Below are positions 33,175 through 57,545 of a DNA stretch of 57,620 nucleotides, one piece after another (positions within the stretch are counted from its first letter, which is position 1; every line of letters begins with the position of its first letter). Position numbers and translations under genes: made by a program. The notes under the pieces were generated by a model, which saw nothing but the letters and a program-made list of their open reading frames with translations, was not told the DNA's origin and searched no databases. The DNA comes from Bacillus sp. ISL-41. Its GTDB lineage: Bacteria; Bacillota; Bacilli; Bacillales; Cytobacillaceae. The stretch spans positions 1-57,620 of the forward strand of contig NZ_JAGGQP010000036.1 in assembly GCF_018613235.1 (NCBI RefSeq). The letters are read 5' to 3'.

Positions 33175-33807
33175 TTATTCTTCGCTCGCTTTTGTTTCTC
33201 TTCCTTCTTCATTTTCAGGCTCTCCTGGTTCTTGTTCTTCGCCGGAGTTGATTTCTTCTTCCACTTTAGGAGGAAGGATTGAGACGACTACCGTATTTTC
33301 GTCATCATTAATTTCATAATTTCCTGTTTTGATATCAGCAAGTGTCAAGTTTTCATTAACTTGCAGGTTTGTGATATCCACATCAATGGTCTCAGGGATA
33401 TTGCCTGGAGTCGCTGTGATGTTCACTTCATGGATCGGCTGCTGAAGGACGCCGCCATCCTTGACACCTGCAGCATCTCCAACGAGATTAACCCTTACGC
33501 TTGCATGTACCTTGGAGCTTTTATCAACCACAAGGAAATCAGCATGAAGAATTTCATTCTTGATATGGTCTTCCTGGTAATCCGTCAGCATGACACTATG
33601 CTGGCTGCCCCCTACATCAAGTGAAATGACACCATTTCGGCCATTTTCACGGATGGTCTTCACAAACTCGATGCTGTCCACATAAATGGACTTGCTATCT
33701 GTAGTCCTTCCATAGACCACTGCCGGAATATTGCCCTCCTGGCGTAACTTCCTCAGGCTAGAACGTTGAGTACCTGTTCGCTCATTTGCTTTCAATGTTG
33801 CACTCAT
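33175..33807 (-). CDS. ctc: Ribosomal protein bL25, Ctc/TL5 form
   Basis: Binds 5S rRNA in the 50S subunit; a general-stress protein in B. subtilis. The N-terminal L25 domain (about 1-90: SSLRKLRQEGNIPAVVYGR) is followed by a TL5-type beta domain (about 95-185) and an acidic Glu/Pro-rich tail (about 186-210). 210 residues. ATG after GGAAGGGG. It has a sigma-B-like promoter and lies between prs and pth. Confidence 0.96.
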   Translation of the reverse strand: MSATLKANERTGTQRSSLRKLRQEGNIPAVVYGRTTDSKSIYVDSIEFVKTIRENGRNGVISLDVGGSQHSVMLTDYQEDHIKNEILHADFLVVDKSSKVHASVRVNLVGDAAGVKDGGVLQQPIHEVNITATPGNIPETIDVDITNLQVNENLTLADIKTGNYEINDDENTVVVSILPPKVEEEINSGEEQEPGEPENEEGRETKASEE

Positions 33808-33852
33808 GGTTTTGTCCCCTTCCTATTTCGTAAGTTCTTGTCTATATAAAAA

Positions 33853-33878
33853 ATGCCCCAAAACAGGAAGGTCTAAAC
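33853..33878 (-). promoter_or_regulatory. Candidate sigma-B promoter of ctc
   Basis: GTTTAG at 33878-33873, a 14-bp spacer and GGGCAT at 33858-33853. This is close to the classic B. subtilis ctc promoter (GTTTAA-N14-GGGTAT) with one change in each hexamer. Confidence 0.7.
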
Positions 33879-33902
33879 GTTTTACTTTTTGAGCCTTTTA
33901 AC

Positions 33903-33940: not shown

Positions 33941-33961
33941 TCAGGAATTTGCTACGGGTTC

Positions 33962-34511
33962 TTGACAGCTTGGGTCTCTTCTCTTCAAAAGCTGTCTCAA
34001 TAATGAGCTTTTTTTGACAACTTTGGACCTGTTTCCTCCAAACCTGTCACAATTACGAGCTTTTCTTGACAGCTTTGGCCCTGTTTCCTTGAAACCTGTC
34101 ACAATTACGGGCTTTTCTTGACAGCTTTGGCCCTCTTTCCTCCAAACCTGTCACAATTACGAGCTTTTCTTGACAGCTTTGGCCCTCTTTCCTCCAAACC
34201 TGTCACAATTACGAGCTTTTCTTGACAGCTTTGTACCTGCTTCCTCAAAAGCTGTCACAATTACGAGCTTTTCTTGACAACTTTGACCCTGCTTCCTCCA
34301 AACCTGTCACAATTACGAGCTTTTTTTGACAGCTTTGTACCTGCTTCCTTGAAACCTGTCACAATAACCAGTTTTTCTTGACAACTTTGACCCTGCTTCC
34401 TCAAAAGCTGTCACAATAACGAGCTTTTCTTGACAACTTTCCGACCTCTTTCCTCCAAACCTGTCACAATAACGAGCTTTTCTTGACAGCTTTGTACCTG
34501 CTTTCTCAAAA
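33962..34511. repeat. 52-bp tandem array 1 (ten units and a partial)
   Basis: TTGACA starts recur at 33962, 34014, 34066, 34118, 34170, 34222, 34274, 34326, 34378, 34430 and 34483: an exact 52-bp period except one 53-bp step. Each unit has a left arm GACAGCTTT or GACAACTTT, a pyrimidine-rich centre and a right arm AAACCTGTC or AAAGCTGTC (33 bp in all), then a 19-bp linker ending CTTTTCTT. Units 4 and 5 are identical; others differ at a few sites. The whole unit is conserved, so it is not a CRISPR array. A 91-codon open frame across its end is an artefact, since 52 is not a multiple of three. It lies between prs and the ctc promoter. Confidence 0.95.
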
Positions 34512-34564
34512 GCAGGATGTGCAAGCGCCTCGTTCTCATCTACTAACATAAAACAAAGAAAAAC

Positions 34565-34592
34565 AAGAGTAGGCTTGCCAGTTGGCAAGCCT
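34565..34592 (-). terminator. Terminator of prs
   Basis: Perfect 9-bp stem AGGCTTGCC (34571-34579) with GGCAAGCCT (34584-34592); downstream on the minus strand is TACTCTTGTTTTTC. Confidence 0.75.
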
Positions 34593-34609: not shown

Positions 34610-35566
34610 TTAATCAAAAAGTGTGCTGACAGATTGCTCTTCGTGGACGCGGATAATTGCTTCCCCGATTAATGGCGCAACTGACAGCTGGTGGATTTTT
34701 TCAACGCGCTTTTCTTCAGCAAGCGCGATTGAATTTGTCACAACCAGTTCTTTAATCTTGGAGTTTTCAATACGCTCAATCGCAGGTCCTGACAAGACAG
34801 GGTGTGTACAGCAAGCGTAAACTTCGAGTGCACCATTTTCAACCAAAGCATTGGCAGCCAATGTAATCGTTCCTGCAGTATCAATAATATCGTCAATCAA
34901 AATGGCAACCTTGCCTTCAATATTACCAACGATGTTCATGACTTCAGCCACATTTGGCTTCGGACGGCGCTTATCGATGATCGCAATCGGTGCTTTCAAT
35001 CTTTCAGCCATCTTTCTTGCACGTGTAACTCCGCCATGGTCTGGAGATACGATGACAACGTCACCGTTCAGTTCTTTGCTCTTGAAGTGGTCAGCAAGAA
35101 TCGGCACACCCATCAAGTGATCGATTGGAATATCAAAGAAACCCTGAATTTGCGGAGCGTGAAGATCAAGCGTGATTACGCGAGTAGCGCCAGCAGTCTC
35201 GAGCAGGTTCGCCACAAGCTTAGCCGTGATTGGCTCACGCGCGCGTGCTTTACGATCCTGCCTTGCATAACCGTAATAAGGCATAACAATATTGATTGTT
35301 TTTGCTGATGCACGCTTCAATGCATCAATCATGATCAGCAATTCCATGATGTTCTCATTTACCGGAGAGCTAGTTGACTGGATGACATAAACATCGCAGC
35401 CACGAATGCTTTCTTCAATGTTGATCTGGATTTCTCCGTCGCTGAACTGGGATACAGAGCATTTCCCTAGCTCTACCCCGATTACCTTCGCAATTTCCTG
35501 GGCAAGTTCAACATTTGAGTTCAGTGAAAAAACCTTCAAATTTGGGTCAAGATACTGGTTTGACAT
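34610..35566 (-). CDS. prs: Ribose-phosphate pyrophosphokinase
   Basis: Makes PRPP from ribose 5-phosphate and ATP for nucleotide, His and Trp synthesis. Visible: [16 protein letters not shown], the ATP loop [43 protein letters not shown] and the PRPP loop [13 protein letters not shown]. 318 residues. ATG after TTGGAGG. Follows glmU by 19 bp, so the two form an operon. Confidence 0.98.
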
Positions 35567-37831: not shown

Positions 37832-37935
37832 AACGGGAGTATTGTGCCCGTTAAACTGGTTTTTCTCTTTTCACGGGCACATGTTGACCCTTCTTGTGAC
37901 CGTTAAACTGGTTTTTCTCTTTTCACGGGCACAAG
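37832..37935. repeat. 52-bp tandem array 3 (two units and a half-unit, different sequence)
   Basis: CCGTTAAACTGG starts at 37848 and again at 37900, a 52-bp period. Each unit has arms GTGCCCGT/ACGGGCAC (37844-37851 with 37873-37880; GTGACCGT 37896-37903 with 37925-37932) around a 21-nt pyrimidine-rich centre. The linkers form a second inverted repeat (CACAAG/CTTGTG). A leading half-arm AACGGG is at 37832. The sequence differs from arrays 1 and 2 but unit length and design agree. It lies between the ridA terminator and the spoVG promoter. Confidence 0.85.
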
Positions 37936-37995
37936 TTGCCACTTCTTGTGATTGTATTCGGTCCCCTCCAGATGTTTATCTCCACTCTTTCAACA

Positions 37996-57022: not shown

Positions 57023-57246
57023 AATTTTCCGAATAATATTTTAGGAAGTTTAGTTGTTTTATATTTTATGATTTACATTCGGTTTCCTTGTATGTCTTAT
57101 AACAATTTAGGTTGGTTTATTATTTTGCAGAGGAGTAAACATTGATTTTTAAGCTTACTGAATAGTAATGCTGAAGGATTATAGAGCTTGTTAGGGAAAG
57201 ATTTTTACTTTTTCTGCGTGCATGGCAGGTTGCTGCTCCTGGTTCG
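57023..57246. other. Intergenic region upstream of csfB
   Basis: About 220 AT-rich bases between the csfB promoter and tandem array 2. No open frame, hairpin or promoter stands out. Confidence 0.5.
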
Positions 57247-57545
57247 GACAGCTTTTGGGGCTTTTCCTTTAAACCTGTCTTAAGTTGCCTCTTCTTCTGA
57301 CAGCTTTTTGTGCTTTTCCTTCAAACCTGTCTGGAGTTGGCTAATCTTCTGACAGCTTTTCCTGCTTTTCCCTCAAACTTGTCTTAAGTTACCTTATCTT
57401 TTGTCAGCTTTTCCTGCTTTTCCTACAAACCTGTCTGAAATTGCCTCTTCTTTTGACAGCTTTTCACACTTTTCCTTTAAACATGTCTGAAGTTGGCTCA
57501 TATTATGACAGCTTTTCCCGTTATTTCTTCAGATCTGTTTAAAAT
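57247..57545. repeat. 52-bp tandem array 2 (six units)
   Basis: GACAGCTTTT starts at 57247, 57299, 57351, 57403 (as GTCAGC), 57455 and 57507: exactly 52 bp each time. Arms GACAGCTTT and AAACCTGTC span 33 bp as in array 1; the 19-bp linkers differ from array 1 (TTAAGTTGCCTCTTCTTCT type). The last unit is the most diverged. It runs to within 75 bp of the right edge of the window. Confidence 0.95.

What the first reader, a model, noticed from the sequence alone, without database searches (positions are those of the whole stretch)
33962..34511. Array 1: ten and a half tandem 52-bp units, each an inverted repeat, between prs and ctc
TTGACA anchors recur at exact 52-bp steps (one 53-bp step). Each unit pairs a GACAGCTTT-type arm with an AAACCTGTC-type arm over 33 bp, then a well-conserved 19-bp linker. 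Two adjacent units are identical, so expansion or gene conversion is recent. Arms do not co-vary cleanly (some units have one mismatch, one pairs perfectly), which points to function or spread at DNA level more than a conserved RNA fold. I know of no named element with this design; it may be undescribed.
Basis: seen in the sequence. Interest (0 to 1): 0.85.

Follow-up and report, generated by a model that had tools for sequence, protein, structure and literature searches.

The report
Replication-oriented 52-bp hairpin repeat arrays
Between two genes of a soil bacterium sits a run of near-identical 52-letter DNA hairpins, one of dozens in that genome; such repeats are already catalogued but unexplained, and in this genus nearly all that were checked point the same way as DNA copying, a clue that they work or grow at the copying machinery.

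Summary
The array is real: 10.6 copies, period 52, window 33959-34511, between prs and ctc of a Mesobacillus genome. It is not undescribed. It belongs to the published '52-nt tandem repeats' of Bacillus (Subirana & Messeguer), a catalogue that names B. selenatarsenatis, boroniphilus and subterraneus. Their function is unknown.

New here: (1) Each unit is a hairpin with two conserved internal mismatches. A second family in the same genomes has unrelated arms but the same plan. 17 of 26 published consensus units also hold an imperfect inverted repeat. (2) Orientation follows replication: 40 of 40 arrays located in one complete relative, 104 of 107 in five, and 26 of 26 places of the second family. 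This holds even where both neighbouring genes point the other way. (3) In the main family the better-folding strand is the lagging-strand template.

Against generality: coagulans-type arrays are not strictly polar (25 of 39), nor are alkalitelluris-type ones. No enzyme was found; Y1/RAYT transposases neither track nor flank the arrays.

Best reading: a DNA-level hairpin satellite formed or maintained on the fork's lagging strand (0.42). Main rival: a helically phased protein-binding array (0.33).

The parts
33959..34511 (-). the 52-bp array of the finding (family 1); replication and gene direction is the minus strand, where units read TTGTGACAGGTTT...AAAGCTGTCAAGAAAAGC
   Evidence: direction by comparison with G005
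37842..37951 (-). 52-bp array of family 2 (arms TGTGCCCGTGAAA / TTTAACGGTCACA), 2.1 copies, between spoVG-like and ridA-like ORFs
   Evidence: same family in relatives
57243..57518 (-). second family-1 array, 5.3 copies, linker type 2 (CTTCAGACAG...CTGTCAGAAG)
34571..34592 (-). terminator-like hairpin after prs
   Evidence: consensus scan; 3 such sites found in the 1-kb region against 1.3 in shuffles, so weak by itself
33852..33879 (-). stretch resembling a sigma-B promoter of ctc (by eye; sigma-B consensus recalled)
   Evidence: similar stretch in the relatives' spacers
34610..35566 (-). prs, upstream neighbour
   Evidence: matched by tblastn in relatives
33175..33807 (-). ctc (general stress protein / ribosomal protein bL25 family; name recalled), downstream neighbour

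Best explanation
A DNA-level hairpin satellite. Each 52-bp unit is one imperfect hairpin (arms of about 13-14 nt with two conserved internal mismatches, 15-nt loop) plus a spacer; an array is a run of such hairpins at a fixed intergenic address. Shown: in Mesobacillus the arrays are oriented with replication and independently of the strand of neighbouring genes, and in the main family the strand predicted to fold better is the one that serves as lagging-strand template. Inferred: the hairpin acts in single-stranded form on that template while the fork passes, and there promotes gain and loss of whole units, by slippage or by an unidentified structure-recognising enzyme whose reach sets the 52-bp step. 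Insertion or growth tied to that strand gives the polarity, as for IS200/IS605 elements. No RNA is needed.
For: Polarity: 40 of 40 located arrays in G005, 104 of 107 in five single-contig genomes, 26 of 26 places of a family with unrelated arms. Independent of genes: five G005 arrays with head-on ORFs of at least 150 aa on both sides still follow replication; for three of them both neighbours have Pfam matches. Terminus placed by GC skew and a dif-like site. Hairpin plan conserved between families; 17 of 26 published consensuses hold an inverted repeat. In family 1 the replication-direction strand folds better as DNA in 68 of 70 array consensuses. IS200-size Y1 transposase copies in G005 and G007 show the same polarity, 9 of 9, as described for lagging-strand transposition (PMC5371812, passages). 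Array ends tend to fall at hairpin edges.
Against: Coagulans-type arrays agree with replication in only 25 of 39 and alkalitelluris-type arrays lie on both strands in both halves, so polarity is not a property of the whole class. No enzyme found. Solo units are nearly absent (4 of 510), unlike dispersed mobile hairpins. Single-strand folding of a family-2 unit is weak and does not favour the replication-direction strand (-5.2 against -5.6 kcal/mol, z -1.0). The 68 of 70 follows mainly from G.G costing less than C.C, and the strand was set by linker content, known to be the replication direction only for G005. The model does not by itself explain why the period is 52. Three arrays are reversed or mixed.
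Confidence: 0.42

Rival explanations
1. A double-stranded protein-binding array. A dimeric factor binds the invariant arms; a 52-bp step is about five helical turns (10.4 bp per turn, recalled), so all sites face one way and the factor can polymerise, for example in nucleoid or chromosome organisation. Polarity is selected because the complex meets forks or translocases.
For: Arms are invariant while loops vary between arrays. The step is rigid: 263 of 282 steps under 120 bp in G000 and 447 of 463 under 80 bp in G005 are 52. Arrays persist: 18 of 40 G005 arrays have an array between matching flanks in G000. Solo units are rare. Subirana & Messeguer propose a nucleoid role (PMC8161180).
Against: Published families of unrelated sequence share the 52-nt length, which needs many different binders with one geometry. 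No candidate protein. Polarity is not seen in the coagulans-type and alkalitelluris-type genomes. Reversed arrays of 10 or more units exist.
Confidence: 0.33
2. A structured or small RNA, or a transcription-termination or mRNA-stability element, made from the array.
For: RNA-seq reads over 52-nt repeats of B. coagulans are reported (PMC8625621, passages). In G005 three arrays start about 100 bp after the 5S gene of rRNA operons.
Against: Orientation ignores the strand of flanking genes. In the window the array lies between a terminator-like site and the ctc promoter-like stretch. No Rfam family reaches its threshold there.
Confidence: 0.08
3. A passenger of a larger mobile or mosaic intergenic repeat that inserts with replication polarity; the tandem units are only its expandable interior.
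For: In an alkalitelluris-type genome 18 of 20 fetched arrays sit between common left-flank modules (by eye).
Against: In G005 no array flanks resemble each other except three rRNA-operon tails. Arrays of the alkalitelluris type are not strictly polar.
Confidence: 0.1

Closest known systems
52-nt tandem repeats of Bacillus and other Firmicutes (Subirana & Messeguer; PMC8161180 main text read; their J Bacteriol 2020 paper not held, unread)
   Same: Period 52, constant length with variable sequence, several families per genome, non-coding, partial conservation between strains; the catalogue names relatives of this organism and notes short signals and their reverse in one repeat.
   Different: The hairpin plan with conserved mismatches, the shared plan of two unrelated families and the replichore polarity are not in the text read.
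IS200/IS605 single-strand insertion sequences
   Same: Orientation follows replication direction; hairpins on the lagging-strand template (PMC5371812 and PMC6006769, passages).
   Different: No transposase or element ends in the array; tandem array at old sites; Y1_Tnp absent from array-rich G016 and G020.
REP / BIME / REPIN with RAYT
   Same: Intergenic imperfect hairpins in many copies.
   Different: Strict tandem 52-bp period, almost no solo copies, RAYT-size genes not flanked by units (0 of 12 loci).
CRISPR array
   Same: Palindromic part at regular steps.
   Different: Loop and linker are repeated within an array, not unique spacers; cas genes were not searched for.

Membership tests
52-nt tandem repeats of Bacillus | Four or more tandem repeats, at least 60% of them of one length, 51-53 nt | tested here: met
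   10.6 copies, nine of ten steps 52
52-nt tandem repeats of Bacillus | Several families of the same length and different sequence in one genome, with shared short signals | tested here: met
   Two arm families in the window and in relatives; shared arms in arrays of G000 and G005
[quoted passage not shown]
   Array between prs and ctc; one 91-aa ORF overlaps it (34313-34588) and looks spurious; its translation was not searched
REP/RAYT | Cognate Y1 transposase present where repeats are | tested here: not met
   Y1_Tnp in 18 of 21 genomes, but none in array-rich G016 and G020, and present in array-free G012
REP/RAYT | RAYT gene flanked by the repeats | tested here: not met
   0 of 12 loci have a unit with 4 or fewer mismatches; three of these loci are from array-poor or array-free genomes
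IS200/IS605-type single-strand transposition | Orientation with replication | tested here: met
   9 of 9 IS200-size copies as yardstick
IS200/IS605-type single-strand transposition | Movement of a defined element with ends | not testable with these tools
   No common flanks in G005; no empty/filled pair examined beyond prs-ctc
CRISPR | Unique spacers between repeats | tested here: not met
   Loops and linkers recur in each array
Rfam RNA families | Match to a curated family at its threshold | tested here: not met
   Window: only two tRNAs at gathering score; seven sub-threshold matches around the array, lowest E 0.18
MITE / known transposon end | Terminal repeats, target duplication, dispersed copies with common ends | tested here: inconclusive
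   None seen in G005 flanks; common flanking modules in G495; target duplications not examined

The most novel reading that the evidence does not exclude
An unknown bacterial machinery recognises imperfect hairpins by shape on the lagging-strand template and copies them in fixed 52-nt steps: a length-ruled, structure-directed amplifier. It would explain why 52-nt repeats of unrelated sequence recur across Bacillales, and why in Mesobacillus they record the direction of replication.
Probability: 0.25. Interest if true: 0.88.

Novelty: new variant of a known kind. Interest (0 to 1): 0.62.

Why it matters
In the published survey, repeats of 51-53 nt are the largest class of Bacillus tandem repeats (1886 of 4029, PMC8161180), and their function and origin are unknown. 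Replichore polarity that ignores the strand of neighbouring genes, in two families with unrelated arms but one hairpin plan, moves the question from 'RNA or nucleoid?' to a specific strand at the replication fork. It gives simple tests: orientation swap, replichore swap, hairpin bait. If the polarity is functional, it is a new kind of oriented chromosome signal. If it reflects growth, it is a bacterial satellite whose expansion is tied to the lagging strand.

Tried and rejected
RNA family: no Rfam match at threshold. RAYT/REP: rejected by co-occurrence and by flanks. Literature: searches missed the class; one search found it. Listings of searches (titles and abstract starts seen) show no report of replication polarity of these repeats; the J Bacteriol 2020 paper is not held, so it may contain something, and supplements were not read.

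Generality of polarity: tested in a coagulans-type genome (G402, origin placed by GC skew only) and rejected there as a strict rule: 25 of 39 agree, one further array ambiguous. In an alkalitelluris-type genome (G495) both strands occur in both halves. Against the local GC skew of the 20 fetched loci, 11 agree, 6 disagree and 3 are near zero; its origin was not located.

Completeness: the genome searches scored only 40 first-look candidates per genome (57 in G000, 48 in G005, 55 in G003, 48 in G007, 49 in G009, 57 in G011), and the list was cut, so array counts are of located arrays, not of all arrays.

Polarity calls: array L119 has C.C mismatches in the right arm of G005 and was called forward by its linker; by mismatch alone the score would be 39 of 40. 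One search set strand by linker base content and mis-called L105 and L119, which I flipped by hand. L201 (G007) and L204 (G003) stand as reversed; L202 is mixed.

Wobble pairs as a test of strand: inconclusive, since the positions that vary disagree. Within family 1 the arms are too invariant for covariation; only position -3 (C-G against A.A) clearly exceeds shuffles. Rows dropped: L119 (39 of 40 arrays used); 6 of 76 arrays with fewer than three standard units. Corrected notebook figures: 'at least 22' shared arrays counted single-flank matches (both flanks: 18 of 40, one of them with a 122-bp left match at a contig end); 27 family-2 places are 26 after joining two pieces 1.6 kb apart; '25 of 38' in G402 is 25 of 39; '263 of 283' steps is 263 of 282.

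Full report
OBSERVATION. The array is present as described: 33959-34511, period 52, 10.6 copies, nine of ten steps 52 bp and one 53 bp, two identical neighbours. It lies between prs and ctc, after a terminator-like hairpin that follows prs and before the ctc promoter-like stretch. Two more 52-bp arrays lie in the window, at 37842-37951 with different arms and at 57243-57518.

ORGANISM AND SPREAD. The closest Ctc relatives are Bacillus sp. ISL-37 (97%) and Mesobacillus selenatarsenatis (96%). Searching the window's genome with the array gives 53 matches, 40 of 57 candidates scored, several at contig ends. A one-unit pattern is found in 19 of 21 genomes of the genus, up to 412 times, with the reversed control at 0 or 1 except 37 in G004. 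A stricter pattern is found in 16 of 193 genomes of the family, in 1 of 25 genera; it does not cover the second linker type. At prs-ctc, six of ten named relatives have 2 to 14 units and four have no array.

THE CLASS IS KNOWN. Subirana & Messeguer (PMC8161180, main text) describe 52-nt tandem repeats in about 30% of the Bacillus species studied: constant length, variable sequence, unknown function, possible nucleoid or small-RNA roles. Table 1 lists B. selenatarsenatis and notes sharing with B. boroniphilus and B. subterraneus. They note that signals and their reverse often occur in one repeat.

ANATOMY. Of 336 units in the fetched loci of the window's genome 306 have the same 35-nt core, and 263 of 282 steps under 120 bp are 52 bp. 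In the G005 pieces 447 of 463 steps under 80 bp are 52. Read in the replication direction the unit is a hairpin: outer pairs, a mismatch (G.A or A.A), GACAG/CTGTC, a G.G mismatch (638 of 797 units), TTT/AAA, a 15-nt loop. The second linker type moves the outer mismatch by one position and adds a C-G pair. Family 2 has unrelated arms on the same plan: TGTG, mismatch, CCGT, G.G, then A/T pairs. Of 26 published consensuses, 17 hold an imperfect inverted repeat that at most 2 of 200 base shuffles equal; nine do not, and some of the 26 are near copies of each other. Array ends in G005 cluster at hairpin edges (29 of 39 starts, 26 of 39 ends; Rayleigh p about 8e-7 and 3e-4). The end-finding favours conserved arms, so this is suggestive only.

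POLARITY. In G005 (one contig) 40 arrays were located, with 40 of 48 candidates scored: 25 up to 2.27 Mb read one way and 15 from 2.75 Mb the other (L119 by its linker). GC skew changes sign between the samples at 2.35-2.37 and 2.40-2.42 Mb, and a dif-like site (26 of 28 to the recalled B. subtilis site) is at 2.403 Mb. Arrays listed in the other single-contig genomes: G009 11 of 11, G011 13 of 13, G007 25 of 27, G003 15 of 16. There the origin is inferred from the prs array and the terminus from proportion, with skew samples only in G007 and G003. Total 104 of 107. L201 and L204 are reversed, L202 mixed. Family 2: 26 of 26 matched places. The arrays are partly shared by descent: 18 of 40 G005 arrays have both flanks at one G000 array locus, 18 of 18 with the same orientation to their flanks. 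Independent events are therefore fewer than the counts.

NOT TRANSCRIPTION. Of 37 G005 arrays with an ORF of at least 150 aa on both sides, five have head-on ORFs on both sides and still follow replication. For three of them both neighbours have Pfam matches: GNAT and glutamyl/glutaminyl-tRNA synthetase; Cys/Met PLP enzyme and thermolysin; 60KD_IMP and DsbD. In the last case a shorter ORF lies nearer on one side.

YARDSTICK. IS200-size Y1 transposase copies in G005 and G007 are oriented with replication in 9 of 9, as described for single-strand transposition on the lagging-strand template (PMC5371812, passages). As DNA, the linker-defined forward strand of family-1 array consensuses, which is the replication direction in G005, folds better in 68 of 70, by 2.85 kcal/mol on average, mainly because G.G costs less than C.C. 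A family-2 unit folds weakly and shows no such preference.

AGAINST A SIMPLE STORY. In a coagulans-type genome array strand agrees with replication in 25 of 39. In an alkalitelluris-type genome arrays lie on both strands in both halves, and 18 of 20 fetched arrays share a left-flank module, that is, they sit in a larger dispersed repeat (by eye). In G005 no flanks are alike except three rRNA-operon tails. Y1_Tnp does not track arrays, and RAYT-size genes have no units nearby (0 of 12). Solo units are 4 of 510.

JUDGEMENT. Shown: a known repeat class; a hairpin plan shared by two unrelated families; near-perfect replichore polarity among the located Mesobacillus arrays, independent of genes. 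Inferred: action or growth of the hairpin on the lagging-strand template. Open: what sets 52 bp. The strongest rival, a duplex-binding array with helical phasing, explains 52 and the invariant arms well, but not the unrelated sequences elsewhere.

Noticed in passing
L095, L096, L098 (G005 at about 16, 38 and 107 kb): Three arrays start about 100 bp after the 5S gene of an rRNA operon; L099 has one after an rRNA operon and tRNA cluster.
   Followed up: partly
L214-L233 (G495): 52-bp arrays sit inside a larger dispersed mosaic repeat whose left module and a recurring CAGGGTAGAC motif are shared between loci.
   Followed up: partly
G004: 37 matches to the reversed control pattern, where other genomes have 0 or 1: possibly another repeat family with mirrored arms.
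   Followed up: no
own genome contig ends, e.g. G000 C6, C49, C50, C52, C55: Several contigs end inside arrays, so unit numbers there are minima and the arrays break the draft assembly.
   Followed up: no
L040 (JAGGQZ010000032.1): Record titled Chryseobacterium sp. ISL-80 carries a Mesobacillus-like prs-ctc region with arrays; the label looks wrong.
   Followed up: no
L117:6727-6811 (-): Group II intron match (RF00029) about 2 kb from an array in G005.
   Followed up: no
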